From Sphingobacteriales bacterium (lineage in GTDB: Bacteria > Bacteroidota > Bacteroidia > Chitinophagales > CAIOSU01), in NCBI GenBank assembly GCA_027483645.1, contig JAIXUD010000021.1, positions 434,001-498,000 of the forward strand: 64,000 bases of DNA. The letters are read 5' to 3'. The notes under the pieces were generated by a model. The model saw nothing but the letters and a program-made list of their open reading frames with translations, made no database searches and was not told where the DNA came from. This document shows, piece after piece, positions 1-27,711 of the stretch. Positions within the stretch are counted from its first letter, which is position 1. Every line of letters starts with the position of its first letter. The position numbers and the translations under genes are program-made.

Positions 1-109
1 TGATGTTATTTCTTGGGTTAGGTCAAGTCCCAGAACATCAAATAGCGAAATTGTAAATATTGCCAACCAGATTTCACAATTGTTTATAGACAATTATGCT
101 ACTCTATAG
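1..109 (+). CDS. C-terminal end of an unidentified protein (partial)
   Basis: Reading from base 2, an open frame of 35 codons runs to a TAG at 107-109; the rest of the gene lies left of the window. The visible tail is rich in Ile, Asn and Ser and carries no motif I recognise. It converges on the cysteine desulfurase gene and the two coding ends overlap by 16 bases. That tight packing suggests it is a real neighbour, perhaps part of the same module, but its function cannot be told. Confidence 0.5.
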   Translation, partial: DVISWVRSSPRTSNSEIVNIANQISQLFIDNYATL

Positions 110-1230
110 GATACCATTTCTGTAATTTTAGAAATACCTACCGCGACTTCAGGAGAGCTGTTACTCTTCCCCACACTAAACCTTAAGCTCGAAAATGCAT
201 CTTCATTACTCAAGCCCATTGCTGTGAGCACATGTGAAGGTTCTATAATTGCAGAAGTACATGCTGAGCCATTAGATATCATAATGTCCTTTAGTCCCAA
301 AATAACCGCATCGGCATCAATACCTCTAAAACAAATGTTACTAGTGTTGTAAAGCCGGAGGTTTTTGTGCCCATTTAAAAAGGCATTATCCAAGGCTAAT
401 AGTTTACTCTCTAATTCATCCCTAAGTTTACCGATGCGCTCTGCATCAGTTATCATTTCTTGGAGTGCTATTTCCGCAGCTTTAGCAAGGCCAACAATAC
501 CCGGTACATTTAGTGTGCCACTCCGATAACCTTTTTCATGTCCGCCACCGTGCAACAAAGGATGTATTTTTACCTTATTTGCTGCTTGGCCTCTCACATA
601 CAAAGCCCCTATACCTTTGGGGCCGTAAAATTTATGGCCAGAAAACGCCATCAAATCTATCCCCAATTCTTCTACATCAACTGCCATTTTTCCGACCGCT
701 TGAGTGGCATCCGTCAAAAATAGCGCACCATTCTCATGAGCGTATTCCGCAATTTCCTTTATGTGTTGTATTACGCCCGTTTCATTGTTGACCAGCATAA
801 CAGAAACCAAGACAGTATCCTCGCGAATAGTGCTTTTAACAGTAGCCAAATCAAGCAGACCATCAGAATGCACCGGTAAATAGGTTACCTCGTATCCCCT
901 TTCTTCAAGGTATTTGCACGTATCTAATACAGCATGGTGTTCGGTTGAAACCGTTACAATGTGCTTTCCACCGCTTCTATATGCATCTGCAACACCTTTT
1001 ATAGCCATATTGATGGCTTCTGTGGCCCCAGAGGTGAAAACTATCTCGTGGCCGGTTGCGCCGATTAGCCTGGCAACTTGTTCCCTAGCCTGCTTAACTT
1101 TCTTGCTTATTTTCACGCCAAAGGCATGACTACTAGATGCATTACCGAACTGATCTGTCAGGAACGGCATCATAGCTTCTAATACACGAGGATCGAGGGG
1201 GGTTGTGGCGTTGTTGTCGAGGTAAATCAT
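94..1230 (-). CDS. Class I cysteine desulfurase (NifS/IscS-like, DndA/SspA candidate)
   Basis: This PLP enzyme of 378 residues removes sulfur from cysteine and carries it as a persulfide. The start MIYLDNNATTP is typical of the family. The PLP-binding lysine is about residue 200 in SGHKFYGPKG, and the sulfur-accepting cysteine is about residue 324 in the mobile loop SNGSACTSA. Length and motifs are complete, so it should be active. No scaffold (IscU) or chaperone gene is adjacent, so it is not the housekeeping isc cluster. It is divergent from a ferritin-like gene and a HerA-like ATPase gene. Cysteine desulfurases are known parts of DNA phosphorothioation systems (DndA, SspA), which makes a DNA-sulfur or tRNA-sulfur role possible; that link is inference, since no DndC/SspD-like gene is visible. 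Confidence 0.93.
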   Translation of the reverse strand: MIYLDNNATTPLDPRVLEAMMPFLTDQFGNASSSHAFGVKISKKVKQAREQVARLIGATGHEIVFTSGATEAINMAIKGVADAYRSGGKHIVTVSTEHHAVLDTCKYLEERGYEVTYLPVHSDGLLDLATVKSTIREDTVLVSVMLVNNETGVIQHIKEIAEYAHENGALFLTDATQAVGKMAVDVEELGIDLMAFSGHKFYGPKGIGALYVRGQAANKVKIHPLLHGGGHEKGYRSGTLNVPGIVGLAKAAEIALQEMITDAERIGKLRDELESKLLALDNAFLNGHKNLRLYNTSNICFRGIDADAVILGLKDIMISNGSACTSAIIEPSHVLTAMGLSNEDAFSSLRFSVGKSNSSPEVAVGISKITEMVSYRVA

Positions 1231-1417
1231 CCGTGTAAAGATATAAGTAAGGCTAACTAAAGCAACAATCCAAATTTGCTACGACCAAATTTTATGAGCT
1301 TTCGAAACTACTTGACATTCTCTTGAGCAGACAATTGATACTAAAAAAGGATTAGACTGAATACCATATTTTTTGTATTCGTCAGATAAATTTCATATTG
1401 TTGTATAAAAAACAACA
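1231..1417. promoter_or_regulatory. Divergent promoter region with a hairpin over the start codon
   Basis: This short AT-rich gap separates the divergent desulfurase and ferritin-like genes and must hold both promoters. At its right end, 1397-1419 form an inverted repeat ATTGTTG / CAACAAT with a nine-base AT loop. The right arm includes the first two bases of the ATG at 1418. No SD sequence precedes that ATG. The stem could be a repressor site or could mask the start in the RNA. Confidence 0.4.
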
Positions 1418-2143
1418 ATGTCGGTTAAGCTTAAATCAGTTAAGTGGGACAGTAATGAGTTAATTGGGAAATTAACAAAACAAGATATTATTCTTAATAA
1501 TTTAGAAGTAGAAGCATGTAGGGAGCTATTGTGGAATGATTTATGCTCAGAATACGACGCAGAGAATTTGTGTCTATACCTAAAAAAATGTGGCGTAATC
1601 TTTTCAAATGATTTTGAAAGGTTCGAGAAAATTTGGCGTCGAGATGAATTTAATCATTATGTTGGGTTTAGGCACATATACTCCATTCTATATGATGAAC
1701 CCATTAATGAGATAGATAAGAAAATCAGTGCTCGGGAGGTTTCATTCGAGCCCATATCTAGTCTGTTGGAAGATGAGTTTAAAATTTGCCTTTTGCTAGC
1801 ATACGATGAAATAGCTACTACTAAATCCTATTCTCAGGATTACTCTCTCTATGAATCTTTTGGCCCACAACAACTGCTTACATGGATCAAGTGGGTTGCC
1901 CGAGATGAAGCATACCATTTTCATAATTGCTTAAATATTATTCGAGAAGTTCATGCGCCTCGACTACCTGAGGTTTCAGCATTAATCGACCAGTTTATCT
2001 CATGGGACCTTAAGGGGGATGGATATAAAGGAACGTTTGTGTTGGACCATGAAGGTGAATATTTTACTGAAGATTTTTTGAAGAAATGCAAAACCCTCAT
2101 AGTCAATAATTTAAATGCAAATGGAAGGAAAATCATCCTATAA
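1418..2143 (+). CDS. Ferritin-like di-iron protein of unknown function
   Basis: The protein has 241 residues and is predicted mainly helical, with no signal peptide or membrane segment. It shows the metal ligands of a ferritin-like four-helix di-iron site: Glu in the first long helix (near residues 30-36), DEFNH at 76-80 (E77, H80), DE at 130-131, and DEAYHFH at 163-169 (E164, H167). Two ExxH motifs with single Glu between and before them is the layout of the ribonucleotide reductase R2 / acyl-ACP desaturase superfamily. That superfamily activates oxygen, but this protein is too divergent for a substrate to be named. The gene overlaps the HerA-like ATPase gene by 29 bases, so the two are surely co-transcribed. 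The pairing with a desulfurase across the divergent promoter is unusual. AT-rich with no SD. Confidence 0.6.
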   Translation: MSVKLKSVKWDSNELIGKLTKQDIILNNLEVEACRELLWNDLCSEYDAENLCLYLKKCGVIFSNDFERFEKIWRRDEFNHYVGFRHIYSILYDEPINEIDKKISAREVSFEPISSLLEDEFKICLLLAYDEIATTKSYSQDYSLYESFGPQQLLTWIKWVARDEAYHFHNCLNIIREVHAPRLPEVSALIDQFISWDLKGDGYKGTFVLDHEGEYFTEDFLKKCKTLIVNNLNANGRKIIL

Positions 2144-3851
2144 ACATGTTTGCCGGTTAAGGTGGACTAAGGAACAAATTAAGGCCGCAGGAAATGGAGA
2201 TAAGTATTTTACATTTTCATTGCACCCACAAGCCTTAAAGGCTCTAAGACCGTCGTATTCTAACTATATAATAATGATAGATGGATTAGACGGTGAAGCT
2301 TATTTGCAACTCAAGGATTACATTAAAGGTAAATCGACCATATTTACGGCAAGTATTATTGGTGGCGATTTTGACTTTCTATTGAATGTTTTTACTGACG
2401 AAACTACCTACTCGGAAATTATAAACAATGTCAATGCGATTCTAAGCAAATCGAATAGTAGGATTAATGAAAGGGTTGAAAGATTGCATATTTCCTATGT
2501 TGTTAGAGAGGAATACATTGCGAGAGGTTTTCAACGCATGGAGAAATTCAGTGTCTCTACAGATGGTATTGAAAAGGATTTCCAAAAAATTGAAGTTGCT
2601 CTTGAAGATTATATGTCTCCAAATGCCACCAGAATATTTGGAAGCCAAGAAAAGATTACAAGGTTTCTTGAATATTGGGAAGATCGAGGAGCAATTGACT
2701 TCTTCTATATTATAGAAGAAAAGAAAATTCCATTAACAGTATATTTATTTTGTTTATACTCAAATAGAGATGGGTTTGAAAAGGTTGTTTTACAATCTAG
2801 GGAAATAAGCAAAAATATTACTGACTTTGCCAAAGTTAGCTGTAAAGATGGTTTTGAACGGTTTTATGAAAACATCAACCATATGATACGGGCGGAGTTT
2901 GAATCAGTAGAAGAATACTATAAGTGGAAAGAAATGCTTTATCAGCATACAATCAATTATGGATTTCACATTAACGTTTTAAGTTTAATAAATGAGCAGA
3001 CCTTATCAGAAATCCCAAAAAAAATTGGAAATTACATAGAGTTCGAAAACAAGATTGTTGAGTATAACGATTTTGCTAATGAAAATGGCCGGAGTATTAT
3101 TATTGGTAACCCTTTGTATGGCAGGATTGAGTTATCCGAACCCAAACTTTTATTAAGTCTAAAATCGTTGCAGCACCACGGAGTGTTAATAGGAAGCCCT
3201 GGATCGGGGAAAACATATACTGCATGTACAATGGTTAAAAAACTACATGATGAAGGAATCTCAGTTCATATAATTGATGGAACAAATGGTATAATTCCAA
3301 CTTTTCAAGATATTTACGGGAGTAAAGTATCCGTGACAGAAATTGATGTCGATCTAGATTCGAGTATGGATAAAATTGATAATAATGGCATCTTCTTTTA
3401 CAATGGGAAACTTAATAGTTTAAAGCGATTACTTCGAAATATATTGCAATCAATTTTGTCGAGAGAACAAAGCGGTGTGGGGAGGGAAACAAGAAACGTT
3501 ATACTAATTGAAGAAGCATTTAGATTTTTAAGTGACAACGATTTAGCTAAAGATTTTTTTGATGCAATTGTCATCGCGGGAAGAAAGGGTTTTAGCATTT
3601 GGTTTTCAACTCAAAAACTCTCTGATTTCCCTTCTAGTAATGGTGTCGGGTTATATACTCTTGCCAAAAATCGCATATTTCAGAAATTAGAAAAGAGCGA
3701 CTATTCAGTTGCAAGTAAATTAATCTGCGGACCAAAATATAGGGAAGAGGATGCCATTTTGGATTTTGAAGACTGGGAGAGGGCTACAGCACTTGTTACT
3801 TTTAGCACAATGAAGTCTCTACCTCCATTAAGAGTAAAAGTGAACTCATAG
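2115..3851 (+). CDS. HerA/VirB4-like P-loop ATPase with AsnC/RAM-like N-terminal region
   Basis: The protein has 578 residues. The C-terminal half is a HerA-FtsK-VirB4 ATPase: Walker A GSPGSGKT at 360-367, Walker B NVILIEEAF around 461-469, and a sensor-like STQ at 498-500. The N-terminal half contains a stretch near 75-130 (GGDFDFLLNVF and the helix after it) that resembles the ligand-binding fold of Lrp/AsnC regulators, and a weaker second copy may lie near 205-295. Such ATPases form hexameric rings that pump or unwind DNA, and many serve as motors in defence systems (HerA-SIR2, HerA-NurA, DndH/DptH). The gene overlaps the ferritin-like gene, so the partner is probably that protein. It ends 9 bases before the convergent polymerase gene. 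The domain reading of the N-terminus is inference. Confidence 0.72.
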   Translation: MQMEGKSSYKHVCRLRWTKEQIKAAGNGDKYFTFSLHPQALKALRPSYSNYIIMIDGLDGEAYLQLKDYIKGKSTIFTASIIGGDFDFLLNVFTDETTYSEIINNVNAILSKSNSRINERVERLHISYVVREEYIARGFQRMEKFSVSTDGIEKDFQKIEVALEDYMSPNATRIFGSQEKITRFLEYWEDRGAIDFFYIIEEKKIPLTVYLFCLYSNRDGFEKVVLQSREISKNITDFAKVSCKDGFERFYENINHMIRAEFESVEEYYKWKEMLYQHTINYGFHINVLSLINEQTLSEIPKKIGNYIEFENKIVEYNDFANENGRSIIIGNPLYGRIELSEPKLLLSLKSLQHHGVLIGSPGSGKTYTACTMVKKLHDEGISVHIIDGTNGIIPTFQDIYGSKVSVTEIDVDLDSSMDKIDNNGIFFYNGKLNSLKRLLRNILQSILSREQSGVGRETRNVILIEEAFRFLSDNDLAKDFFDAIVIAGRKGFSIWFSTQKLSDFPSSNGVGLYTLAKNRIFQKLEKSDYSVASKLICGPKYREEDAILDFEDWERATALVTFSTMKSLPPLRVKVNS

Positions 3852-3859: not shown

Positions 3860-6781
3860 TTAAAAAGCCCATTCAATTCGCTCCATCTTCACTACCTCAA
3901 CACTAGGCACATCAAAATCCTGCACCACCGTTCCTTTTATGAGGTACACACCACGCCCCAGACTTGGAGAATTTTTAACGGCATGTGGGAAATGCACCGT
4001 ATCAAACAGCTTGCCTTTACTGTCAGTAAAGCAGCCAAAGAACATATTGTCGCCGTTCACCGTGCGCACCAATTTGTCGGCCACAAAATAACCTACGATG
4101 TAAACCACATTGCCGAGATTGGCCATCAGTTCATCTGCATAGATAGTGCCCATATCCTTATGCTTTAGCAGTGAGAAAGGGTTGGTGTGTGGGAAACCCA
4201 AGATCTTCATTTCGTCCAATGCTCGCTCGTTAGCCTTGTATTCCAGTTCCGGCAATTCAGTTGGCTCCGCCTCGCCGGCAAACAGCTCAACCTTCGGCAC
4301 CGTCTTTTTGGTCTTGCCATAGAAGAAATGCGCATCCCAAAGCAGCTCTTTACTTGTGCGCCCTGTGAAACGGAATGCCTGTATCCTGATAAGAATACGC
4401 ACTTGCTCCAGTGAAATCGGTATCCTTTTCAGGAAGTTGTTGAGGCCCGTAAACTCTCCTGCCCTTTCGCGTTCCCTCAGTATTGCCTCGCGTGTGCCAT
4501 GTTCCAAATCCTTGATGAGGCAAAGACCCATATAAATGGTTTTGCCTTCCAGTACCGCGAGGTCATTGCTCATGTTCACGCAAGGCAGTTCCACGTTGGC
4601 TCCCAACATCCGCGCTTCGTGCAGATAAAATTCTGTCGAGTAAAAGCCGCCGAAGTTGTTCAGCACCGCCGTCATGAACTCAATGGGGTGGTGCGCTCTT
4701 AAATAGAGGCTCTGGTAGCTCTCGACTGCGAATGAAGCCGAATGGCCCTTGGCGAAGGAGTACCCCGCAAAGCTCTCTATTTGCCGCCATATCTCAGCCG
4801 CATCTTCCTCGGGGTAACCTTTTGCCTTACAGTTCTCGAAATACTTTTCCTTCACGCGTTGGAACTCCTCGCGTGAACGAAATTTGCCCGACATGCCGCG
4901 CCTCATTACGTCGCTTTCTTCCAGCGTAAGTCCCGCATAGAGGTGCGCCACCTTGATAACGTCCTCCTGGTACACCATTACGCCGAACGTATCAGGCATA
5001 AGCTCTAATAATACTGGATGGGATTCCTTGCGCTTTTCAGGAAAGCGATATCGCTCTATGAACTTGCGCATCATGCCCGAACTTGAAACGCCGGGCCGTA
5101 TGACTGAGCTGGCGGCCACCAGCCCTAAATAGTCCTCGACTTCTAATTTGCGCAAAAGCTGTCGCATGGCCGGGCTTTCCACGTAAAAGCAGCCTATCGT
5201 GTCGCCCGACTTTAGCAACTGCTTGATAACAGGGTCTTCCTTGAAACGTGGTATGTCGTGGATATCAATGTCCAATCCCCTGTTCTCTTTCACCAGCACA
5301 ACGGCATCCTTTATATGGCCAAGGCCGCGCTGGCTGAGAATGTCGAACTTATAAAGCCCTACATCTTCTGCTTCCAGCATGGAGAACTGTGTGGACGGGA
5401 AGCCCACCGGCAGCAGCTCAAGAGCCGTGTAATAGGTCATGGGCAGTTCAGAGATAAGAACTCCGCAGGCATGCACCGAAAGAAGATTGGGCAGACCATG
5501 AATAAGCGGCGCATACATCAAAACCAGCTTGCCGAACGTATCCGCGTCCTTAAGCTGTCGCCGTTCAGTCTGCAAGGTTTCTATATCCCCATCGGGCAGG
5601 CCAAATACTTTGCCCAGTTCTCGGATACACGAGCGTCGCTCAAAGGTGTTATAGCTTCCCACCAATGCCGTGCAGCCCGGATACTTGTCATGCATATACC
5701 GCCGTATATCGTCCCGATCCGTATGCGAGAAGTCAATGTCGAAATCTGGCGGGCTTTTGCGCGAAGGATTGATGAAACGCTCGAAATACAAATCAAGCTC
5801 GATAGGGTCTACATCGGTTATTCCGAGGCAATAGGCGACAATGCTGTTGGCCCCGCTGCCCCGCCCGATATGGAAGTACCCCTTGCTTCTCGCGTATTGA
5901 AGCAGGTCCCAGTTGATGAGGAAATACGCCGTAAAGCCAAGCTCACTTATCATCTCCATTTCCTTGGCAAGGCGGTTGCGTGTTTTATTATCAGGGGCAC
6001 CATAGCGATACAGCAATCCTTGATAAGAAAGCCTTTCCAAAAGGTCGTAATCTTCAGCATCGCTGGAGAGGAAGCGTTTCTTGTTCTTCGCCGTGCCGAA
6101 GGAAAAATCCACCTTGCTTTGTTCGAGAATGCGTTGTGCGTTCACGAGCGCCTGCGGAAACTCCCCATAGATTTCAAGCAGGCGCGTATGGGGATGTGCC
6201 ATATCGTCAAGCCTTCCTTGTGCCTCTGTACCGAGCTTGCTTAGCAATACGTTATCTCCGATAGCCCGCAGCAAGCGGTGGGTGTTAAAGTCTCGCTTGT
6301 CCCGAAATGTCAGTGTAGCCAAGGCAACCGCTTTGGCCGCATGTTCCTTTGCGCCATGCAGCCTGAAGGCGGCAATGTCGCTGGGCCTCAATCCCACATA
6401 CTCGTTGTCGGATAGTTTTCTCTTAATGCCCTTATGCCATGGATAGATAACATAGACGTTGGTAAAGCGGGGCGGTGTATGTGGGATGTCCGTCTTTTCC
6501 ATCTTGTGCTTTGACAGGAACTCGTTGAGTTCCCTAAAGCCCTCGATGTTTCGGGCAATGCCGATAAAGAGTTGCTTTACGCCCTGCCGGAAATCAATTC
6601 CGATAACGGGCGTAACATCGTATTTGAGCGCAAGACGCATAAAGTCGATACAGCCTGAAGTGTTGTTTATGTCCGTCAGTGCCGCCGCCGAAATGCCACA
6701 CGCTTTCAGGTGCGCCAACAAGTCCTCTGGCGACATGACCCCGTAATTGAGGCTGAAATGGCTATGGCAGTTGATGTACAT
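3860..6781 (-). CDS. DNA polymerase III alpha subunit, DnaE2/error-prone type
   Basis: A C-family polymerase of 973 residues, shorter than replicative DnaE (about 1160), as is usual for DnaE2. The N-terminal PHP domain begins MYINCHSHFSLNYG; its second motif reads ALTDINN, where replicative enzymes have a His, so metal binding is probably weakened. The polymerase palm carries PDFDIDF with the catalytic aspartates near residue 345. A helix-hairpin-helix region and an OB-fold follow near the C-terminus. The gene begins three bases after the dinB stop codon, so the two form one operon and probably one translesion machine. It is likely transcribed from the promoter upstream of dinB. In many bacteria DnaE2 works with ImuB; here a DinB-like enzyme takes that place and no imuA is present. 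Confidence 0.88.
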   Translation of the reverse strand: MYINCHSHFSLNYGVMSPEDLLAHLKACGISAAALTDINNTSGCIDFMRLALKYDVTPVIGIDFRQGVKQLFIGIARNIEGFRELNEFLSKHKMEKTDIPHTPPRFTNVYVIYPWHKGIKRKLSDNEYVGLRPSDIAAFRLHGAKEHAAKAVALATLTFRDKRDFNTHRLLRAIGDNVLLSKLGTEAQGRLDDMAHPHTRLLEIYGEFPQALVNAQRILEQSKVDFSFGTAKNKKRFLSSDAEDYDLLERLSYQGLLYRYGAPDNKTRNRLAKEMEMISELGFTAYFLINWDLLQYARSKGYFHIGRGSGANSIVAYCLGITDVDPIELDLYFERFINPSRKSPPDFDIDFSHTDRDDIRRYMHDKYPGCTALVGSYNTFERRSCIRELGKVFGLPDGDIETLQTERRQLKDADTFGKLVLMYAPLIHGLPNLLSVHACGVLISELPMTYYTALELLPVGFPSTQFSMLEAEDVGLYKFDILSQRGLGHIKDAVVLVKENRGLDIDIHDIPRFKEDPVIKQLLKSGDTIGCFYVESPAMRQLLRKLEVEDYLGLVAASSVIRPGVSSSGMMRKFIERYRFPEKRKESHPVLLELMPDTFGVMVYQEDVIKVAHLYAGLTLEESDVMRRGMSGKFRSREEFQRVKEKYFENCKAKGYPEEDAAEIWRQIESFAGYSFAKGHSASFAVESYQSLYLRAHHPIEFMTAVLNNFGGFYSTEFYLHEARMLGANVELPCVNMSNDLAVLEGKTIYMGLCLIKDLEHGTREAILRERERAGEFTGLNNFLKRIPISLEQVRILIRIQAFRFTGRTSKELLWDAHFFYGKTKKTVPKVELFAGEAEPTELPELEYKANERALDEMKILGFPHTNPFSLLKHKDMGTIYADELMANLGNVVYIVGYFVADKLVRTVNGDNMFFGCFTDSKGKLFDTVHFPHAVKNSPSLGRGVYLIKGTVVQDFDVPSVEVVKMERIEWAF

Positions 6782-6784
6782 ATC

Positions 6785-8014
6785 CTAGATGTGTCGATGT
6801 GCGGGCGGCGTAGGACGCTCGCCCGTCCAGGGGTTGCCTACACCAAATTCCAAATCCATGATCGAGGCACGGGTTACGATGGAACTGTCATGGTATTTCT
6901 TTCTGAGGTAATCGAGTTCCTGATAGAGCTGAATACGCTCAACCGCATCCCCCAGCAAATCAATCTGGTGCCCGCCACAGACAAGGTTGCTGATTTTAAC
7001 GCCTATCAGCCGCACGAGCTTACGCCGTGCGAACAGCTTGTCAAACAGCCGCAGCGCCACCGGTATCAGATGGTGGTCGCACGACGTATACGGGATGCGC
7101 TGCTGCATGGAGTTTACCTCCATGTCCGAATACTTCATCTTGACGCTGATACAGGCCGTAACCTTGTTGCCAAGTCGCAATTGATAGGCCAGGCCTTCGG
7201 TCATGGCCGTGATGAAATTACGAAGCTTCACCATATCAATCGTATCCAGGTCAAACGTGCGTTCGAGCGACAGGCTCTCTTGCTCGAAATACTCCTTCAC
7301 AGGACTGTTATCAATTCCCTTGGCCCTTAGCCAAAGCGTTTCGCCGTTCTTACCCAGCACTTTTTCCATCGCCTGCTTTGGCATTTGCTGGACGGTCCTG
7401 ATGGTATGTATTCCGAGTTCCGATAGTATCTGCGTTGTTTCCTTGCCGACCATAGGCAGTCTTTGTACCGGCAACGGGGCCAAGAAATCCTTTTCCCGAC
7501 CTTGCTCAATCAGCATCTTTCCATTGGGCTTGCTCTCGCCAGTGGCTACTTTGGAAACCGTCTTGTTCTCCGATATTCCCATGGATAGTGGCAAACCCGT
7601 TTCCCTACGGATCTTGTCACGCAATTCGGAAGAGAACTGTGCGACACCGAAGAGCTTGTCCATGCCGGTCATGTCGATATAAAATTCATCGACCGAAGCC
7701 TTTTCAAGCTTCGGAACGCTCTCCTTCAAAATTTCCGTAATGGTTTTGGAATACTTGAAGTATTTGCCACTATCCCCACGAATGACAATCCCTTGCGGAC
7801 ATAGCCGCCTCGCAATCTTCATGGCCATCCCCGAATGGATGCCAAATAACCGAGCTTCATAGCTGCATGCGGCTACAACGCCACGGTCGCTCGTGCCGCC
7901 GACCATGACGGGCTTGCCATTGAGCAAGCTATTCTCTAGCCGCTCTACCGATACGAAAAACGTATCAAGATCGAGATGTACAATGCTCCTATTGCTCGTT
8001 CCAAAAATTGCCAT
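6785..8014 (-). CDS. dinB: Y-family DNA polymerase IV (DinB-like)
   Basis: A translesion polymerase of 409 residues. The catalytic carboxylates are intact: LDLDTFF near residue 18 and SVDEFYID near residue 105, with the steric-gate and finger region GVVAACSYEAR between them. Thumb and little-finger domains follow. The C-terminus ends in PTPPAHRHI and I see no clear beta-clamp pentapeptide there. It is the first gene of a two-gene operon with the DnaE2-like polymerase, three bases apart. An inverted repeat GCTAAT/ATTAGC lies at 8031-8045, 17 to 31 bases before the start, and is a candidate SOS operator. Intact catalytic residues argue for a true polymerase rather than an ImuB-type inactive partner. 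Confidence 0.92.
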   Translation of the reverse strand: MAIFGTSNRSIVHLDLDTFFVSVERLENSLLNGKPVMVGGTSDRGVVAACSYEARLFGIHSGMAMKIARRLCPQGIVIRGDSGKYFKYSKTITEILKESVPKLEKASVDEFYIDMTGMDKLFGVAQFSSELRDKIRRETGLPLSMGISENKTVSKVATGESKPNGKMLIEQGREKDFLAPLPVQRLPMVGKETTQILSELGIHTIRTVQQMPKQAMEKVLGKNGETLWLRAKGIDNSPVKEYFEQESLSLERTFDLDTIDMVKLRNFITAMTEGLAYQLRLGNKVTACISVKMKYSDMEVNSMQQRIPYTSCDHHLIPVALRLFDKLFARRKLVRLIGVKISNLVCGGHQIDLLGDAVERIQLYQELDYLRKKYHDSSIVTRASIMDLEFGVGNPWTGERPTPPAHRHI

Positions 8015-8030
8015 AAACTAAAATTATTAG

Positions 8031-8045
8031 GCTAATATAATTAGC
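8031..8045. promoter_or_regulatory. Candidate damage-response operator upstream of dinB
   Basis: The sequence GCTAATATAATTAGC is a perfect 6-base inverted repeat around a 3-base centre, just before the dinB start and within the divergent gap shared with the SRAP gene. Position and symmetry fit a repressor site. No lexA gene is visible in the window, so the regulator would be the host's or unknown. Confidence 0.35.
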
Positions 8046-8180
8046 AAATGTGGTACCAAAAAAGGGGTAGCCTCAAATATATTGGCGACACATGCATACG
8101 GACAACCATAAGGTGAAAGCAAATCTATATGGTGAACCAATTGCGGGGCAAAATGGTATCTTCATAAAAACGATAAATAA

Positions 8181-8993
8181 ATGTGTTACGACGCGCGACA
8201 ACATGCATTGCGACTGGCAAAGATTGAAGCTCATTTTGGAGGGATTAGTTACGACCGGTCTGCATGGCGGCCTGAACATTCCATTTCCGCATTCAGCAAC
8301 GGAAAGGTAGCTGTACTTACTCCAGAAAAATCGCATGAGGTGCAGTGGCTCTATTGGGGTTTCGTGCCGTCCTGGGCAAAGAATGCCAAGGATGGCGAGC
8401 AGTTGCGGATAAAGACCCCCAACTGCCGTGCCGATACCTTGTTGGATAAAATCCGCAACAAGCAGCATTCCATGTTTAAACCGCTCGTAAATAATCCATG
8501 TGTAATTTTGCTGGATGGTTTCTTTGAATGGCACACGCTTTCCGACGGCAAGACCAAAATCCCTTACTACATTTCCATGAAGGACTGTATGGCATTTGCC
8601 GTTGCCGGTTTCACCAGCACATGGCATGACTTTGCCGAGCCGGAGCGCAGCTATACGGGTGTGACCCTATGCACGACCTCTGCCAATGATCTTTTAGGAT
8701 GGATACACAACAAGCCGCGCGGCTCGGAAGACTTCCGAATGCCGGCCATGCTTTTGCCGGAGGAAATTTCATCGTGGATGGATGTTTCGATACCTGCTAC
8801 AGATCGCTTGCAACTAGCCAAGCCGTATCCGGCATCAGAGATGGAGGCATACACCATTGTCAATTTCAAGAAGAAGGAGAACCGCTATATGGACGGCGAG
8901 GAAATGATGCAACCGTTCGATCACAACATCCCCGGCATTCCACTTCGCATTGACGGTGCGGAGCTTTCAGGGCTTCTCTCGGCCAACGCTTAG
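8181..8993 (+). CDS. SOS response-associated peptidase (SRAP, YedK/HMCES family)
   Basis: The protein has 270 residues and starts Met-Cys (MCYDARQ). In this family the second-position cysteine becomes N-terminal and forms a thiazolidine crosslink with abasic sites in single-stranded DNA. The conserved block DGFFEWH (near residue 113) with the catalytic Glu, and the C-terminal PAMLLPEE block with a preceding conserved region, are present. It protects abasic sites during replication of single-stranded DNA. It is divergent from the dinB-dnaE2 operon, which makes a coherent DNA-damage cluster that would also help a conjugating element survive as single strands. No SD precedes the ATG. Its last 27 bases overlap the 3' end of the convergent gene at 8967. 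Confidence 0.9.
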   Translation: MCYDARQHALRLAKIEAHFGGISYDRSAWRPEHSISAFSNGKVAVLTPEKSHEVQWLYWGFVPSWAKNAKDGEQLRIKTPNCRADTLLDKIRNKQHSMFKPLVNNPCVILLDGFFEWHTLSDGKTKIPYYISMKDCMAFAVAGFTSTWHDFAEPERSYTGVTLCTTSANDLLGWIHNKPRGSEDFRMPAMLLPEEISSWMDVSIPATDRLQLAKPYPASEMEAYTIVNFKKKENRYMDGEEMMQPFDHNIPGIPLRIDGAELSGLLSANA

Positions 8994-9401
8994 GAAGATT
9001 TTAATCAGGTCTTCCCGTGTCAGCTTAAGCAGCTCTTCATAGGCAGCTTTGTTTGCTGCGCCATCAGGGGCGAACAGGTCTTGCTTGAGCGTTGCGATAT
9101 GCGCCTTGATGATTTTGTGAAAATGCTCTATCGCAATGTTGTTAGCGGCATCAACGGCCTGATCTGTGTCTTTTGCCGTGAGCGGGTTTTTCTTCAGAAC
9201 GTCATAAGGCGCATAAAGAAACCATGAGCGTCCGTCTTTCTCAACTCGAAAAAAAATGTCTTCGGTCAAATGGCCATGATGAAGGCTATCTTCAATTTTT
9301 TTCCAAACCAAGGGCAGTTGTATCTCGAGGGGTTTAGCAGATTGTGACACGCATCTGAATTTAATCTCGCTCCGGAAAAATAAGTTTTTTACGCTTATCA
9401 T
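8967..9401 (-). CDS. Unknown protein, fourth gene of a membrane-protein operon
   Basis: A soluble-looking protein of 144 residues with no signal peptide. It contains a WKKIEDSLHHGHL block and a long Ala/Lys-rich helical C-terminus. I do not recognise a family. The start overlaps the previous gene by 41 bases; the only ATG in frame was used, but a later non-ATG start is possible. It is the last of four same-strand genes (10864 to 8967) whose junctions overlap or nearly touch, so it is presumably translated from the same message. The 3' end overlaps the convergent SRAP gene by 27 bases. Confidence 0.65.
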   Translation of the reverse strand: MISVKNLFFRSEIKFRCVSQSAKPLEIQLPLVWKKIEDSLHHGHLTEDIFFRVEKDGRSWFLYAPYDVLKKNPLTAKDTDQAVDAANNIAIEHFHKIIKAHIATLKQDLFAPDGAANKAAYEELLKLTREDLIKIFLSVGREKP

Positions 9402-9837
9402 CCCAATTCGACTGACTGGACAATGACCCTTGAATAATGCGCTTTAAGCTTCTTTTTACAGGTTCTCTCACGATTACAATTTCATTTTTTGAATTTTCGC
9501 CCCACTGTGCCAGCTCAGTCCATTCCAAAACTTCATAGCCTTCAGCATCTTCACGTACCGTCAGGTCTTTGACCAAACGACCGTGCAAGGCAGGATGGCC
9601 ACCACAATGAATATGACTGTTTTGATCCACATCGGCCTGTTGCGGTACTCGATATCTCGAAAGTTCTGCAAGCTCTTCTAACGTTGAATTTGAGAGATTG
9701 TATATGAGTTCAACCACATCTTTTACATACGCTGTTTTCCGCCGTCCATTGATTATTGCAGCTACGCGATCAACTTTCGCCTGAGAATTTCCGCCCCAGT
9801 CCCAAGTTATAAGCCAAGCAGTTTTGATCGTCTTCAT
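9361..9837 (-). CDS. Unknown cytoplasmic protein, third gene of a membrane-protein operon
   Basis: A protein of 158 residues beginning MKTIKTAWLITWDWGG. The N-terminal half looks like a small alpha/beta fold with a conserved WLITWDW start. The middle has HIHCGGHPALHG (about residues 93-105), rich in His and Cys, which could bind a metal or be a catalytic centre. No membrane segment. It begins one base before the stop of the upstream membrane gene, so translational coupling is likely. Function unknown; the soluble His-rich partner of two membrane proteins suggests a sensor or enzyme in a signalling or defence module. Confidence 0.68.
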   Translation of the reverse strand: MKTIKTAWLITWDWGGNSQAKVDRVAAIINGRRKTAYVKDVVELIYNLSNSTLEELAELSRYRVPQQADVDQNSHIHCGGHPALHGRLVKDLTVREDAEGYEVLEWTELAQWGENSKNEIVIVREPVKRSLKRIIQGSLSSQSNWDDKRKKLIFPERD

Positions 9838-10319
9838 TATACAAGGGTTTCATGAAGGTATTGGAAATACTGTTTGACAACGTGAAACCCGAAATAAATG
9901 ATAAATCCAACAAGTAAAAGAATAAGTTGTCCTTTTCGCAATGCTACATTTTTACGAGATATAGCAGACATCTCAACCCCCTTTTGTTGATACAAGGCGA
10001 ATTGCTGATCGGTCTTATTTTCCTTCCGACCTAAATTCAAATAATCATGATTAAGGATACCTCCAACTTCGATATTCTGGATCTGTTTATAACCAAAATA
10101 AAAGCTCATCGACCAACTAAATACAGCTAAGTACGGGAGCACAAAGCATAAAATATTAATCGCATCTCTTTGAGAAAGGATAATGCCTTTATCGAGTGAG
10201 GTCATAACATATGCGATTGCTGCCGCAGAAAGAGCCATCACGTAATAAACAAATTGAATTTGATGCGTTTTGGTCGAATAGAGCAACGTGTCCATCCGTT
10301 CCGTTTCTTCATTTTTCAT
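9837..10319 (-). CDS. Small membrane protein with about three TM helices, second gene of operon
   Basis: A protein of 160 residues. Three hydrophobic stretches are seen near residues 24-43, 51-75 and 129-148, with a polar segment rich in Lys, Gln and Asp between the second and third. There is no signal peptide. The layout recalls the small SLATT-type membrane effectors of nucleotide-signalling defence systems, but I cannot show homology. It is followed directly by the 158-residue gene (stop and start share base 9837) and preceded by a second three-TM protein, so the two may form one complex. Confidence 0.68.
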   Translation of the reverse strand: MKNEETERMDTLLYSTKTHQIQFVYYVMALSAAAIAYVMTSLDKGIILSQRDAINILCFVLPYLAVFSWSMSFYFGYKQIQNIEVGGILNHDYLNLGRKENKTDQQFALYQQKGVEMSAISRKNVALRKGQLILLLVGFIIYFGFHVVKQYFQYLHETLV

Positions 10320-10336
10320 TAATAGGAATTTACGAT

Positions 10337-10864: not shown

Positions 10865-10952
10865 ACTTAAGGGTATATTCTCCAGAATGCTGTCGAATAA
10901 GTAAATTTATTTATTTTCTGGATGCTTCCTTCGAAACATTGATAAACTAATC

Positions 10953-10982
10953 TTGACAGGAAGCAATTCCTAGGATTATTAT
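10953..10982 (+). promoter_or_regulatory. Sigma70-like promoter of the first ssb gene
   Basis: TTGACA at 10953-10958 and TATTAT at 10977-10982 are 18 bases apart, a Proteobacteria-type promoter. The spacer contains GGAAGCAATTCCTAGG. The same combination, CTTGACAGG then AATTCCTA then GGTTATT, recurs at 14731-14760. Bacteroidota promoters normally have TTTG and TAnnTTTG boxes, so these look imported. Confidence 0.5.
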
Positions 10983-15956: not shown

Positions 15957-17162
15957 ATGAAGCTGACCAACATAAAATGTCTGAATGCCAAGCCTGAAGC
16001 CAAAAAATACAAACTATTCGACGGGCAAGGACTGTTTTTGGAGGTAAGACCTAACGGTAGCAAGTATTGGCGCATGAAATATCGCTACCTTGGTAACGAA
16101 AAGCTTTTGGCCTTAGGCGTATATCCCGACGTATCGCTTGCCGAAGCGCGGGAGAAATGTACCGAGGCCAAGAAAGGCTTGGCAAACAACATTGATCCCA
16201 TCCAGGCAAAACGACAAAAGGTCCGTGAAGCCAAACTCAACTCTGCCAATACCTTTAAATCCGTTGCCCTGGAGTGGCACGAACTGAACAAGGATAGGTG
16301 GAGTAGAAACTACGCCTACAAAGTAAAGAAAGGCCTTGAGCTTAATGTCTTCCCATATATAGGCAGCAGGCCCATCAAGGAAATAACACCGCCGGAATTG
16401 CTTACCGAGTGTCTCCGAAAAATCGAGAAAAGAGGTTCATTGGATATTGCGGGACGTACCCGCCAAATATGTTCTCAAGTATTTCGGTATGGCATCCAAA
16501 CAGGCAGGTGTAACTGGAATGCGGCGGATAATTTACAGGGCGCTATTAAAACCAAGAAAACGGAACATTTCCGTACATTGGAACTGGGAAAGGTACCTGA
16601 TTTCCTCAGAGCATTGGAGCGCAACGAGGCCAGGTTGTTCGAAAGGACACGCAGGGCTGTATGGTTATCCTTGTATACCTTTTGCCGACCCGGTGAAATT
16701 CGACAGGCGCGTTGGCAGGATATTGATTTGGATGCGCGCCTTTGGACTATACCCGCTATGTTAATGAAGATGGACCGCGATCACATCGTGCCCTTAAGCC
16801 GACAAGCCGTGGCAATTCTATTGGAACAGTATAAAGAAGTGGGAAATTTGGAAACGGAATGGGTTTTTCCGCTGCATGGCAAACTAAAGATGCCCATGAG
16901 CGACGGTACCGTGAACAAAGCCATTAAACGGCTTGGTTACGGTAAGGATATGGTTGCCCATGGCTTTCGCGCACTGGCAAGAACAACCATTAGGGAAAAG
17001 CTGAAATACGATAGTGAAATTATCGAAAAACAGCTTGCCCATAAGACCAAGAACCCTTTAGGCGAAGCTTATGACCGAACGCAGTTCTTGGATGAGCGGA
17101 CTATAATGATGCAGGAATGGGCGGATTATATTGATAAAGCTAAATGCAAAGCGGAATTTTAG
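15957..17162 (+). CDS. int: P4-type tyrosine integrase
   Basis: A site-specific recombinase of 401 residues. The N-terminal arm-binding domain of the P4 family (DUF4102-like) is seen in MKLTNIKCLNAKPEAKKYKL and the GQGLFLEV block. A SAM-like core-binding domain follows, then the catalytic domain. Catalytic residues are Arg in RPGEIRQARW (about 238), His and Arg in HGFRALART, His in LAHKTKN and Tyr in YDRTQFLDER. SD AGGAGG precedes the ATG. This family usually integrates into the 3' end of tRNA genes, and a tRNA-Asn lies at the right end of the region, but 10.5 kb away rather than adjacent. P4-type integrases are most common in Proteobacteria. Confidence 0.94.
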   Translation: MKLTNIKCLNAKPEAKKYKLFDGQGLFLEVRPNGSKYWRMKYRYLGNEKLLALGVYPDVSLAEAREKCTEAKKGLANNIDPIQAKRQKVREAKLNSANTFKSVALEWHELNKDRWSRNYAYKVKKGLELNVFPYIGSRPIKEITPPELLTECLRKIEKRGSLDIAGRTRQICSQVFRYGIQTGRCNWNAADNLQGAIKTKKTEHFRTLELGKVPDFLRALERNEARLFERTRRAVWLSLYTFCRPGEIRQARWQDIDLDARLWTIPAMLMKMDRDHIVPLSRQAVAILLEQYKEVGNLETEWVFPLHGKLKMPMSDGTVNKAIKRLGYGKDMVAHGFRALARTTIREKLKYDSEIIEKQLAHKTKNPLGEAYDRTQFLDERTIMMQEWADYIDKAKCKAEF

Positions 17163-18486: not shown

Positions 18487-21246
18487 CTATGATTTGTAGA
18501 CTTCTATTGTAGAATTCTTTTTCGGGTCAGTTTCCCTGTGCCTTGGCATTTCCAGTTGCTTTTGTTTTGACGATTTTTCATTTAGCATTCTATAATATTC
18601 TGCCTGCCTTTGCCTTTCAATTCTTGAATGATGCTTTTTTGCCACTTCGCCCGCACTCATTCTATCACCGCTCCTTACAATGGACTTGCGCAGTTCCTCT
18701 TTATTGTCGGTGTATATGGTCAACCGTTCCGTCCCCCTAGAGGCAGAAACGTAAAATTGCTTTTCGTTGGATGCCCCAAAGGAAAGAGCACTTTGCGATA
18801 TAATAACATCCTGTGCATCCTTTCCTTGCGAGGCGTGACTGGTACTTACGTAAGCATGCCTGAAATTCCGGTATTCTTTTGATAAGGTTTTGCCGTTCGA
18901 TAGCATCAGGTCGCCTGTTTTGGTAAGCCCCTCTACTTGATAGGTTTGCCCATTATGTACCTTTGTGCCTTCCTGTGTTTTTCCATTCGCGGTTACCCTT
19001 ATCAGGTCACCCATCGCTATCGGCGTTTGCTGGCGTTGGTAAACTTGAAAGTTTTCTGTCTTATCCAGTGGCAGTTTGGTTTTCTTACCATCTTCCAACG
19101 ACCTGATGTAAACAGCATTTGTTTTTTCGGAAGGTACTACCTCGTATTTGCCCCCCGCTTTAAATCCTTTTTGATTTTGATGGAACTGGACAATCATACC
19201 CTCTCGATAATTGGCCGTATCCGTCTTTTGGGCGGCGGTATATGAAACATCCCTTTGCGTATCAAAGGTAGTTTCAAGACCCTTGATGATACCGCTCTGT
19301 TTTAGCTTTTGCCTTACTACCTCAGAAAGTGCCTGCCCTTCCGCGTGAGTTGGCGAAACAATGAGTGCCGAGCGACCTTGCTTCACCGAAGCAAGGTAAG
19401 CATGGGCAATTTCCTCCTGCCTCTGTGCAGTATCTTCTATTTCCTTAACCGCCCCAAGTTTGTCGAGCCTCTTAAATCCTTCAAGCGTTTGGCCTTTGGC
19501 AAGTAGCTCAACCGCTTGACGGTATGGTTCAGGCTTTTGGCGCACCACCTTTCTCACCATTGCTGTCTTTACTTGTGCATTTTCTTGCAACAGGCGTAGC
19601 GCATCACCAGCTTCAACAGAGGTATGTTGCTTTGTATCGCCACTAAGAATGATACGGGCGTTTAGCTTTTGCGCTACACCAAAGAGTCGCAACATAGTAG
19701 GTACTCCAACCATGCCGGCCTCATCTACCAGCAGCACGTTATCTTTTAGCTGTTGCTGCATTTCAGGGTTTCTTAATAGCGAGGCTATGGTATCGCTCCC
19801 ATAAAACCCTTTGTCTTGCAATACGCCTCGACTTGCTTCCGCAGACGGCGCGACTGCCAATAGTTTTCTGCCCGTTTCCTCGATGCCGTTTTTCACTTCG
19901 GTCAATAGAGAGGTTTTGCCCACACCTGCACCGCCTGCCAATATGCTGATATAGTCTTGAGACGATAAGAGTTCTTTAATAGCCAATCTTTGCTCTTCGT
20001 TCAGAAACTTCTGTCTGGGTTCATAAATAGGGTTCAGCGCCGTAAACCTACCTTTGCCACTTACCGCAAATTCCACCATCCGCTCTTCGGCGCGCGCCAT
20101 TTCCTTGGTGGTGATATAGCTGATGGTCTGCTTCTCGGCGTAAAGGATATTGTCCCGGTTTGCTAGTGCGTTCTCAACGTCCTGTGGGCTTAGTGTGCCG
20201 TAACCCAATTTCATGGCCTGTGCCAGTACCCGTTTTTCTGGGATGGCGGACTGCCTTTCAAGAAAATGCGCAAGGGCTTTTTCAATTGCCTCTTTAGCCG
20301 TGATTTTGTTGCTGCTTGGCTTTGGCTCTCCCTTGGCTGTCCGGATGCTTTCCAGCTCTTTAGGCGTTAACCTGTTTTCCCAGACTTGATATAGCTTTGC
20401 CTCTTCGATGCTTTTGTTCTTTTTGAGACGTGTCTTTGCCCCCAGTTCCGCTTTTTCCTTGGCATCGGTTATGCCCTTTAGTTTGGCAAGCTCATCGACC
20501 TGTTTTGTTCGGTTGGAAAACTTATCCCGCACGACCTTGGGAACCTGTTTTACTTCCCACCGCTCCAAGATCCTTTGCACCTCGTAACCGCACTTTTGAA
20601 CCCCAAGGCTTAAGTTGCTGTGATAAACCTCCTCATAGAAAGGTGCAAGTCTCCTGATATTGCCTTCTTCCAATGCTTGAAATCGTTGCTCTTGCTCGTT
20701 CCATGTTACATTGGGCACGAAAGAATGCGTGTGCAGGTGGCAATCAGGTATATACATCTTAGTGCCGTCAAGCTCGCTTTCCACCGGCCTGGCGGTCATA
20801 TGCTCGAAGGCTGCATACACGATATTGCCAGTTGCTTGATAATGTTTATCACTGCCGCTTCCAGCCTGAGTCTGCATATCCGCTTCAATATAGGCCATAG
20901 CAGCCTTGACCGCGTTTCGGTGGGCTTTGAGGATTTCCGGGTCCTTGGTAAGCGCATAAAGGATGCTGATGCTCTTTGGCGCATTAAAGCAATATTCGTA
21001 CCCTGCACGGCGGTTGCTTACATGGCGCACCGTGAGGCGCTTCCCCGTAAGAGGGTTTATGTTTCTCACTACTTGGGAAAACTCTTCTTTGGTAACGTTG
21101 CCTTCAAGGCCGAGCATTGGCGCAGCCTTGCCTTGCCACTTGGCAGTGACGGCTTTTTCCGCGAAAAAATAATCTTCTTTCGACAAGGCTTGAGTGAAGT
21201 ATGCGATAGCGCCTTCGCTATCACTGCTGATAGTGATACGTAGCAT
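18487..21246 (-). CDS. MobF-family conjugative relaxase with helicase domain
   Basis: A protein of 919 residues from ATG 21246 (an upstream ATG at 21285 would add 13 residues unlike the family). The N-terminal TrwC/TraI relaxase domain has candidate catalytic tyrosines at residues 16 and 26 (AYFTQAL, EDYFF) and the metal-binding histidines in CHLHTHSF near residue 168. A RecD-like superfamily 1B helicase follows, with Walker A GGAGVGKTSLL, Walker B LLVDEAGM and motif GDTKQH, and the late motif HASQGK. It nicks oriT and unwinds the transferred strand. No TraD/VirD4 coupling protein or type IV secretion genes are seen in the window, so they lie outside or are borrowed. Confidence 0.93.
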   Translation of the reverse strand: MLRITISSDSEGAIAYFTQALSKEDYFFAEKAVTAKWQGKAAPMLGLEGNVTKEEFSQVVRNINPLTGKRLTVRHVSNRRAGYEYCFNAPKSISILYALTKDPEILKAHRNAVKAAMAYIEADMQTQAGSGSDKHYQATGNIVYAAFEHMTARPVESELDGTKMYIPDCHLHTHSFVPNVTWNEQEQRFQALEEGNIRRLAPFYEEVYHSNLSLGVQKCGYEVQRILERWEVKQVPKVVRDKFSNRTKQVDELAKLKGITDAKEKAELGAKTRLKKNKSIEEAKLYQVWENRLTPKELESIRTAKGEPKPSSNKITAKEAIEKALAHFLERQSAIPEKRVLAQAMKLGYGTLSPQDVENALANRDNILYAEKQTISYITTKEMARAEERMVEFAVSGKGRFTALNPIYEPRQKFLNEEQRLAIKELLSSQDYISILAGGAGVGKTSLLTEVKNGIEETGRKLLAVAPSAEASRGVLQDKGFYGSDTIASLLRNPEMQQQLKDNVLLVDEAGMVGVPTMLRLFGVAQKLNARIILSGDTKQHTSVEAGDALRLLQENAQVKTAMVRKVVRQKPEPYRQAVELLAKGQTLEGFKRLDKLGAVKEIEDTAQRQEEIAHAYLASVKQGRSALIVSPTHAEGQALSEVVRQKLKQSGIIKGLETTFDTQRDVSYTAAQKTDTANYREGMIVQFHQNQKGFKAGGKYEVVPSEKTNAVYIRSLEDGKKTKLPLDKTENFQVYQRQQTPIAMGDLIRVTANGKTQEGTKVHNGQTYQVEGLTKTGDLMLSNGKTLSKEYRNFRHAYVSTSHASQGKDAQDVIISQSALSFGASNEKQFYVSASRGTERLTIYTDNKEELRKSIVRSGDRMSAGEVAKKHHSRIERQRQAEYYRMLNEKSSKQKQLEMPRHRETDPKKNSTIEVYKS

Positions 21247-21344
21247 GGTCAGGTCATTTCGCTGGTGAGTTGGTGTGCCTTGCATTCCAAAGCACAGATA
21301 CTATTGGGGATGCTTGATCTTATCCTAAGTTTAAATGGGTGTAA

Positions 21345-27626: not shown

Positions 27627-27637
27627 GCTATCTCTAG

Positions 27638-27711
27638 CTCCCCCTTCAGGACTTGAACCTGAGACCCTCTGATTAACAGTCAGATGCTCTAACCAGCTGA
27701 GCTAAGGAGGA
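27638..27711 (-). tRNA. tRNA-Asn (anticodon GTT)
   Basis: A complete 74-base tRNA. The acceptor stem TCCTCCT pairs with AGGGGGA (one G-U), the D arm is GCTC/GAGC, the anticodon stem TCTGA/TCAGA encloses CTGTTAA with anticodon GTT, and the T arm is TCAGG TTCAAGT CCTGA. No CCA is encoded. Its 3' end points left into the mobile region, which makes it the likely integration site. Confidence 0.97.

What the first reader, a model, noticed from the sequence alone, without database searches (positions are those of the whole stretch)
94..3851. Cysteine desulfurase + ferritin-like di-iron protein + RAM-HerA ATPase: possible new defence or DNA-modification module
Seen: a complete cysteine desulfurase faces away from an overlapping gene pair, a ferritin-like protein with two ExxH motifs and a HerA/VirB4-like ATPase. 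Known: desulfurases are parts of DNA phosphorothioation (DndA, SspA), and HerA-like motors drive several defence systems. Inference: sulfur delivery, oxygen or iron chemistry and a DNA motor together would make a nucleic-acid modification or sensing system. I know of no described system with these three. The partial gene at 1-109 may be a fourth part.
Basis: partly seen in the sequence, partly recalled or inferred. Interest (0 to 1): 0.78.

Follow-up and report, generated by a model that had tools for sequence, protein, structure and literature searches.

The report
Sulfur-marking phage defence on mobile DNA
The desulfurase gene belongs to a known kind of bacterial defence that marks DNA with sulfur, sitting on a mobile element with unusual extra genes; the neighbouring iron-protein and DNA-motor genes look like a separate rare pair, not a new three-gene system.

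Summary
Left of the window (L004) lie SspB, SspC and SspD; the desulfurase (94-1230) is their SspA: an Ssp DNA-phosphorothioation locus. Between SspD and SspA sit a deoxyribosyltransferase-like/membrane-protein module and a GHKL-ATPase/GIY-YIG module (its end is the partial gene at 1-109). They recur beside SspBCD in 2 and 1 of 20 other Ssp loci; the first also on a gammaproteobacterial plasmid. Ferritin-like and HerA genes: 0 of those 20. The ferritin-like protein has a confident di-iron fold (pLDDT 92.8, six invariant ligands), but in 13 of 13 loci compared its homologues sit beside a saccharopine-dehydrogenase-like gene, not a HerA. The only full-length HerA relative found is beside a HEAT-like gene. 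Everything lies in a 45.4-kb element bounded by a 48-bp tRNA-Asn repeat. Verdict: known Ssp system, a new variant by its accessory modules; the ferritin-HerA pair is unexplained cargo, its link to Ssp neither shown nor excluded.

The parts
1..109 (+). 3' end of a 150-aa GIY-YIG-like protein; the whole gene is L004:14657-15109, the last of a run of plus-strand genes SspB-SspC-SspD-NDT-p198-GHKL-GIY
   Evidence: (GIY-YIG 0.0038, 17.9 bits, below Pfam's cut-off 22.6); 48% identical homologue behind a GHKL homologue and SspBCD in L077
94..1230 (-). cysteine desulfurase, the SspA of this Ssp locus
   Evidence: SspA 1.4e-165, DndA 2e-165; 65% and 63% to desulfurases of two other Ssp loci, 55% to another desulfurase of the same genome
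1418..2143 (+). ferritin-like di-iron protein (241 aa), first gene of a divergent overlapping pair
2115..3851 (+). HerA-type ATPase (578 aa) with an N-terminal part (about 1-310) of unknown fold
15957..17162 (+). second tyrosine integrase of the carrier element
   Evidence: Phage_integrase 1.2e-19
18487..21285 (-). TrwC-type relaxase of the carrier element
   Evidence: TrwC 1.3e-60
27637..27684 (-). right end of the element: 48-bp exact repeat, the 3' part of tRNA-Asn, matched at L120:17260-17307 beside the left integrase

Best explanation
The desulfurase is SspA of an Ssp phosphorothioation defence locus carried as cargo of a 45.4-kb integrative element. Shown by sequence: SspA, SspB, SspC and SspD are present; between SspD and SspA lie a deoxyribosyltransferase-like/membrane-protein module (NDT+p198) and a GHKL-ATPase/GIY-YIG module, each of which recurs beside SspBCD elsewhere. 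Inferred from the published system: SspA takes sulfur from cysteine, SspD (ATP-pyrophosphatase type) with SspB and SspC puts phosphorothioate into one DNA strand, and the marks tell own DNA from phage DNA. Inferred here: with no SspFGH hit and no sign of SspE, the GHKL/GIY-YIG module is the best candidate for the restriction part, the GHKL ATPase acting as a clamp that licenses the nuclease on DNA; NDT+p198 is more likely an additional or backup effector at the membrane that breaks N-glycosidic bonds of nucleotides or NAD, since elsewhere it coexists with SspFGH or with a PbeA-like gene. The divergent ferritin-like/HerA pair is most likely a separate two-gene cargo unit: a di-iron oxidase of a family otherwise seen in small-molecule gene clusters, its gene overlapping that of a rare HerA-type motor. 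Its function is not established.
For: SspB/C/D at 4.6e-93, 0 and 2.4e-94 and SspA/DndA at 1.4e-165/2e-165. Own SspA is nearer to desulfurases of two other Ssp loci (65%, 63%) than to another desulfurase of the genome (55%). NDT and p198 directly follow SspD in L082 and L087; the only NDT hit among 72,556 plasmid records is a fusion of a hydrophobic N-terminal part with the NDT domain directly after SspBCD. In 395 genomes the only other near-full-length GHKL homologue (54%) lies behind SspBCD and is followed by a 48% GIY homologue; the next best (35% over residues 6-407, G355) lies directly behind a DndC-DndD/PbeC-DndE set. Ferritin-like and HerA genes: 0 of 20 other SspBCD loci. Ferritin homologues beside a saccharopine-dehydrogenase-like gene in 13 of 13 loci compared. 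HerA relative beside a HEAT-like gene, no Ssp in the 14.3 kb held. Element ends: 48-bp tRNA repeat.
Against: No wet evidence of phosphorothioate in this organism. The desulfurase reaches no NCBIfam equivalog cut-off, so SspA rests on context. NDT and GHKL/GIY modules are seen in few other loci (2 and 1 of 20), so they could be neighbours rather than partners. NDT is not a stand-in for SspFGH everywhere: the Tenderia locus also has SspF, SspG and SspH, and L082 has a PbeA. The GIY-YIG match is below Pfam's cut-off. The ferritin-HerA pair is immediately beside SspA across a 187-base divergent spacer, which would also fit co-regulation.
Confidence: 0.7

Rival explanations
1. The ferritin-like/HerA pair is a further restriction or sensing module of this Ssp system: HerA moves along DNA and the di-iron protein attacks or senses phosphorothioate or nucleotides by oxygen chemistry.
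For: It is adjacent to SspA and divergent from it, and its two genes overlap by 29 bases; FtsK- or HerA-type motors are reported in SspH and DndH (PMC8092258, passages; PMC10853773, passages); partners of SspBCD are diverse, 2,211 of 2,678 sspBCD occurrences had neither sspE nor sspFGH (PMC8092258, passage).
Against: 0 of 20 other SspBCD loci have either gene; ferritin homologues stand in small-molecule-like clusters; the HerA relative in G468 has no Ssp in the 14.3 kb held.
Confidence: 0.12
2. The ferritin-like/HerA pair is an independent defence or anti-plasmid unit of its own, with HerA as the constant part and a variable second protein (ferritin-like here, HEAT-like in G468).
For: HerA relative (30% over residues 30-576) next to an unrelated 161-aa HEAT-like protein; the element is a cargo carrier whose relative in G468 carries other genes.
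Against: Only two members known; no plasmid or viral-contig hits; HEAT assignment below Pfam's cut-off.
Confidence: 0.35
3. The desulfurase is an ordinary Fe-S or tRNA-thiolation enzyme, by chance next to the pair.
For: The protein scores high against IscS, NifS and DndA models alike, and the genome has at least one more desulfurase.
Against: SspD starts 3.2 kb to the left of the desulfurase gene and SspB and SspC lie behind it; closer to desulfurases of Ssp loci than to the genome's other one; no Fe-S or tRNA-thiolation family among the 10 L004 proteins scanned with Pfam.
Confidence: 0.05

Closest known systems
SspABCD with SspE or SspFGH, phosphorothioation defence (PMC8092258, passages read)
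   Same: SspA, SspB (DUF4007), SspC (BrxC-like ATPase), SspD (PAPS-reductase type) in one locus
   Different: no SspF, SspG or SspH hit among the 14 proteins of L004 scanned with PADLOC, a library shown to hold those models, and no SspE hit either (whether it holds an SspE model I did not see); instead NDT/membrane and GHKL/GIY-YIG modules
Dnd systems (PMC10853773, passages read)
   Same: DndA-like desulfurase; GIY-YIG (URI) nucleases are reported beside Dnd modification genes; a GHKL relative follows DndC-DndD/PbeC-DndE in L119
   Different: here no DndD or DndE hit; SspD matches DndC only weakly (5.4e-05)
Type-4 BREX (PMC12839542, passages read)
   Same: BrxC-type ATPase, PAPS reductase and DUF4007 are homologous; a desulfurase is reported in 255 taxa (56%) there
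   Different: no PglZ or BrxL hit in the 21 proteins scanned
Acyl-ACP desaturases, R2-like ligand-binding oxidases and azoxy synthase VlmB (for the 241-aa protein)
   Same: predicted fold, Z 16.6, 14.9 and 14.2 with rmsd 3.5-3.7 over 214-222 residues
   Different: 10-12% identity in these rows; no sequence match to any solved structure; Foldseek alone gives nothing at E<=0.001
CMP N-glycosidase 4jen and nucleoside deoxyribosyltransferases (for the 143-aa protein)
   Same: phmmer 4.1e-05 over residues 50-133; Nuc_deoxyri_tr2 3.6e-11
   Different: here with a membrane protein behind SspBCD; substrate unknown. Such folds as effectors in retrons are recalled; only lists two retron papers that hold the term

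Membership tests
Ssp phosphorothioation system | SspB, SspC and SspD together, in order | tested here: met
   (adjacent, overlapping genes)
Ssp phosphorothioation system | cysteine desulfurase SspA in the locus | tested here: met
   a desulfurase was found in 11 of 22 Ssp loci compared
Ssp phosphorothioation system | SspFGH as restriction partner | tested here: not met
   no hit at E<=1, 0.1 or 0.01; the library holds SspF, SspG and SspH models. 2,211 of 2,678 published sspBCD occurrences had neither SspE nor SspFGH (PMC8092258), so this limits the subtype, not membership
Ssp phosphorothioation system | SspE as restriction partner | tested here: inconclusive
   no SspE hit, but I did not see whether the library holds an SspE model
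Ssp phosphorothioation system | phosphorothioate in DNA | not testable with these tools
   needs mass spectrometry
Dnd system | DndD and DndE beside DndC | tested here: not met
   no DndD or DndE hit; one search shows the library holds both
Type-4 BREX | PglZ and BrxL | tested here: not met
   no hit in the 21 window and flank proteins scanned; that the library holds these two models was not seen
ferritin-like di-iron superfamily | four-helix bundle with E..ExxH..E..ExxH ligands | tested here: met
   metal content not testable here
HerA/FtsK ATPases | HerA central domain with Walker A | tested here: met
   (DUF87 above cut-off); GSPGSGKT in the sequence. PADLOC's best model is mad8 (5.9e-10), which also hits the TraG-like protein and SspH, so I read it as shared ATPase core
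Lrp/AsnC RAM domain (N-terminal part of the ATPase) | RAM fold | tested here: inconclusive
   searches give no significant match; the single-sequence model is unusable (pLDDT 34.5)
GIY-YIG nucleases | GIY-YIG motif and catalytic R and E | tested here: inconclusive
   E 0.0038, below cut-off; YIY..YVG and an R and E kept in the L077 homologue; meaning of the motif recalled
nucleoside 2-deoxyribosyltransferase-like | family domain with LE(I/V)G(Y/F)A motif | tested here: met
   (two models above cut-off); motif in 4 of 4 aligned sequences; role of the Glu recalled

The most novel reading that the evidence does not exclude
The di-iron oxidase and the HerA motor are a further, recently recruited partner of this Ssp system, in which a DNA-translocating ring delivers an oxygen-activating enzyme that reads or destroys phosphorothioate-marked or unmarked DNA. 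I saw no paper describing a di-iron oxidase in phage defence, but the searches were narrow and their lists capped (10 of 12 papers listed, none with 'ferritin-like'; 12 of 262 listed, none joining the two subjects).
Probability: 0.1. Interest if true: 0.82.

Novelty: new variant of a known kind. Interest (0 to 1): 0.45.

Why it matters
Most published sspBCD occurrences have no known antiviral partner (2,211 of 2,678 in PMC8092258, given there as 83.9%; passage read). This locus offers two concrete recurring candidates, a GHKL/GIY-YIG module and a membrane-linked deoxyribosyltransferase-like module, that can be tested directly; the GHKL family also follows a Dnd modification set in one genome. 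It also shows how a window edge can make part of a known system look like a new three-gene one.

Tried and rejected
Recurrence of the pair. Ferritin-like protein: 1 of 395 genomes of the own phylum, its own; no match in phages or viral contigs; single-sequence scan of genome contigs confirmed none; 17 plasmid records, 16 Pseudomonas and 1 Bradyrhizobium; 11 loci with alignment A1, all Pseudomonas or Paraburkholderia. HerA: 51 of 395, 27 of 99 and 47 of 159 genomes match, but over the full length only the own genome and G468; the other rows cover at most about 140 residues around the ATPase core; the samples overlap and must not be added. No match in plasmids or viral contigs; the phage records were not searched with HerA.

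Rows dropped. In one search, 85 of 395 genomes match SspD (and 7 of 14 control genomes, so weak matches are not specific); I took the 21 at E<1e-40 (20 plus own) and left out the weaker ones. The Tenderia locus was found through NDT, so it does not count for NDT frequency. Of 17 plasmid records with the ferritin homologue I opened 3 and compared neighbours in 2 of these plus the 11 loci; the Bradyrhizobium one (29% over half the protein) was left out. L007 and L030 carry the same gene cluster, so the 13 are not all independent. One search looked at genes within 5000-17500 of each locus. Pfam names of those neighbours were checked in L007 and L008 only; elsewhere they rest on BLAST clusters.

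I first took both accessory modules as replacements for SspE/SspFGH. One search showed SspF, SspG and SspH in the Tenderia locus beside its NDT fusion, and L082, which has NDT, also has PbeA. So NDT is now described as an additional effector.

Led nowhere: HerA structure from a single sequence; GHKL (E<=1e-20) and GIY in plasmids (no match); a PF01507 scan of the own genome that listed another gene but missed SspD itself, so I draw nothing from it; paper searches joining deoxyribosyltransferase with phosphorothioate (none), GHKL with GIY-YIG and anti-phage (none), deoxyribosyltransferase with transmembrane and phage defense (two retron papers, listing only). The Z values are for a helical protein, for which values up to about 13 can be mere arrangement; families not listed there are not excluded.

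Considered and rejected: ordinary Fe-S locus; Dnd; type-4 BREX (see membership test).
Full report
Observation. The three genes are exactly where described: a 378-aa desulfurase on the minus strand (94-1230), a 187-base spacer, then the overlapping plus-strand pair 1418-2143 and 2115-3851 (29-base overlap). The desulfurase keeps the lysine and cysteine motifs of its family (GHKFYG, NGSACTS; read from the sequence, roles recalled).

What lies left of the window. The window is G000:C13:434001-498000. The left flank (L004) holds, all on the plus strand and mostly overlapping: SspB (6642-7526), SspC (7507-10770), SspD (10760-11863), a 143-aa nucleoside-deoxyribosyltransferase-like protein here called NDT (11889-12320), a 198-aa protein with a hydrophobic N-terminal stretch, p198 (12301-12897; read by eye), a 587-aa GHKL (HATPase_c_3) protein (12897-14660), and a 150-aa GIY-YIG-like protein (14657-15109), which is the gene cut at window 1-109 and overlaps the end of the desulfurase gene by 16 bases. 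PADLOC names SspB (4.6e-93), SspC (0), SspD (2.4e-94) and SspA/DndA (1.4e-165 / 2e-165). Pfam gives DUF4007, PAPS_reduct, Nuc_deoxyri_tr2, HATPase_c_3 and a weak GIY-YIG. SspC and SspD show GTGKS and SGGKDS motifs (read by eye). No NCBIfam equivalog cut-off is reached by the desulfurase, so its name rests on context and on its nearer kinship to desulfurases of two other Ssp loci (65% and 63%) than to another desulfurase of the same genome (55%).

So the desulfurase's job is most likely the known one: sulfur for DNA phosphorothioation. The Ssp papers that I could search name SspE and SspFGH as antiviral partners (search listings; PMC8092258 passages). That paper reports 2,678 sspBCD occurrences, 2,211 of them (given there as 83.9%) with neither partner, and proposes that more partners exist.

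Comparison with other Ssp loci. SspD was searched in 395 genomes of the same phylum; 85 match, 21 of them (own included) at E<1e-40. I fetched 20 kb, or what the contig held, around the 20 others and compared open frames of at least 90 aa, after removing strongly overlapping ones, with 13 proteins of the own island. Ferritin-like: 0 of 20. HerA: 0 of 20. NDT and p198: 2 of 20, both times directly behind SspD (L082, L087). GHKL: 7 of 20, at 24-30% over about 200 residues in six and at 53% over the whole length in one (L077), which alone also has the GIY protein (48%). In a separate search of the same 395 genomes with the GHKL protein, 26 match; only the own genome and G030 (the source of L077) match over nearly the full length. 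The next best, G355 (35% over residues 6-407), lies directly behind genes that PADLOC names DndC, DndD/PbeC and DndE, with a PbeA-like gene further on. With NDT as query, one of 72,556 plasmid records matches. There, in Candidatus Tenderia electrophaga, a gammaproteobacterium, a 362-aa protein (hydrophobic N-terminal part fused to NDT) directly follows SspB-SspC-SspD, with a desulfurase upstream on the other strand, and SspH, SspG and SspF follow. So NDT can coexist with SspFGH. Clustering of all 22 loci gives further recurring neighbours: a helicase-like family in 12 of 22 (the L082 member is PbeA, the L071 member weakly so) and an 807-817-aa protein in 4 of 22.

The ferritin-like protein. 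Six presumed di-iron ligands are invariant in 15 of 15 sequences; the model has mean pLDDT 92.8 and pTM 0.90. Foldseek gives no match at E<=0.001, best an acyl-ACP desaturase at 1.3e-03; VIA-align gives Z 16.6 (rmsd 3.5, 222 residues) for an acyl-ACP desaturase, up to 14.9 for R2-like oxidases and 14.2 for the azoxy synthase VlmB. This is the fold of oxygen-activating di-iron enzymes; activity is not shown. In 13 of 13 compared loci its homologues (26-38% identical) stand next to a saccharopine-dehydrogenase-like gene, in 9 with an EamA-type transporter, in 4 as a tandem pair. That looks like small-molecule biosynthesis, so its place beside a HerA here is exceptional.

The HerA. Full-length relatives found: one, in G468 of the same order (30% over residues 30-576), next to a 161-aa HEAT-like protein (7e-05, below cut-off) and with no Ssp or ferritin-like gene in the 14.3 kb held. 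In samples of 395, 99 and 159 genomes all other hits cover only a short stretch around the ATPase core. PADLOC's best model for it is mad8 (5.9e-10), which also hits other motors here.

The carrier. A 48-bp exact repeat of the 3' part of tRNA-Asn lies at window 27637-27684 and at L120:17260-17307 (G000:C13:416260-416307), next to a tyrosine integrase (L120:17449-18666). Between them are 45.4 kb with a second integrase, a TrwC relaxase, ArdC, a TraG-like ATPase and a caspase-like gene. A related carrier in G468 (integrase 53%, TrwC 39%) shows no match to the Ssp genes or the pair in the 40 kb read.

Mechanism. Shown: gene content, order, recurrence counts, predicted fold of the 241-aa protein, element ends. 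Inferred: phosphorothioation by SspABCD as in the published system; GHKL/GIY-YIG as the restriction candidate; NDT/p198 as an additional effector. Nuclease loading by a GHKL clamp and N-glycosidic cleavage are proposals from family knowledge (NDT matches CMP N-glycosidase 4jen at 4.1e-05). The ferritin-HerA pair I take as separate cargo; adjacency and the divergent spacer leave a small chance of a functional tie.

Novelty. Known system (Ssp), new variant through its accessory modules. My paper searches joined deoxyribosyltransferase with phosphorothioate (none) and GHKL with GIY-YIG and anti-phage (none); 'ferritin' does not occur in the two surveys of phosphorothioation and BREX systems, nor do 'GHKL', 'HATPase' and 'deoxyribosyl'. 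In one search the ten papers listed of twelve have no 'ferritin-like'; one search lists 12 of 262, none joining the two subjects. GIY-YIG (URI) nucleases beside Dnd genes are in print (PMC10853773, passage). The library holds open-licence papers only.

Noticed in passing
L004:11889-12897 (left of the window), L082:10876-11902, L087:10941-11958, L131:11281-12369: Deoxyribosyltransferase-like protein with a membrane-type protein (two genes, or a fusion in Tenderia) directly behind SspD: a candidate additional Ssp effector; in Tenderia SspFGH is present as well.
   Followed up: partly
L004:12897-15109, L077:11955-14238, L119:8791-10461: GHKL ATPase followed by a GIY-YIG-like protein behind SspBCD in two members of the phylum; a GHKL relative without the GIY gene behind a DndC-DndD/PbeC-DndE set in L119.
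   Followed up: partly
window 27637-27684 and L120:17260-17307: 48-bp tRNA-Asn repeat bounding a 45.4-kb integrative element that carries the Ssp locus, integrases, a TrwC relaxase and ArdC.
   Followed up: yes
window 25733-27256: Caspase-domain protein (PF00656, 1.1e-34; PADLOC caspase 3e-09) just inside the right end of the element.
   Followed up: no
window 3860-8014: DnaE-type polymerase and Y-family (ImuB-like) polymerase genes in one run, a mutasome-like pair on a mobile element; names are my reading of the sequence, not searched.
   Followed up: no
L077:9521-11974, L081:7453-9876, L084:5222-7675, L087:6691-9144: An 807-817-aa protein in 4 of 22 Ssp loci; the L077 one has a weak HATPase match (1.6e-4) and no PADLOC hit, the others were not scanned.
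   Followed up: partly
L008, L038, L039, L040: Tandem ferritin-like genes with a saccharopine-dehydrogenase-like gene and a 118-aa protein in Pseudomonas: possibly a biosynthetic cluster; I did not look for it in the literature.
   Followed up: partly
L118:7591-9862: Only full-length HerA relative found, beside a HEAT-like 161-aa protein.
   Followed up: partly
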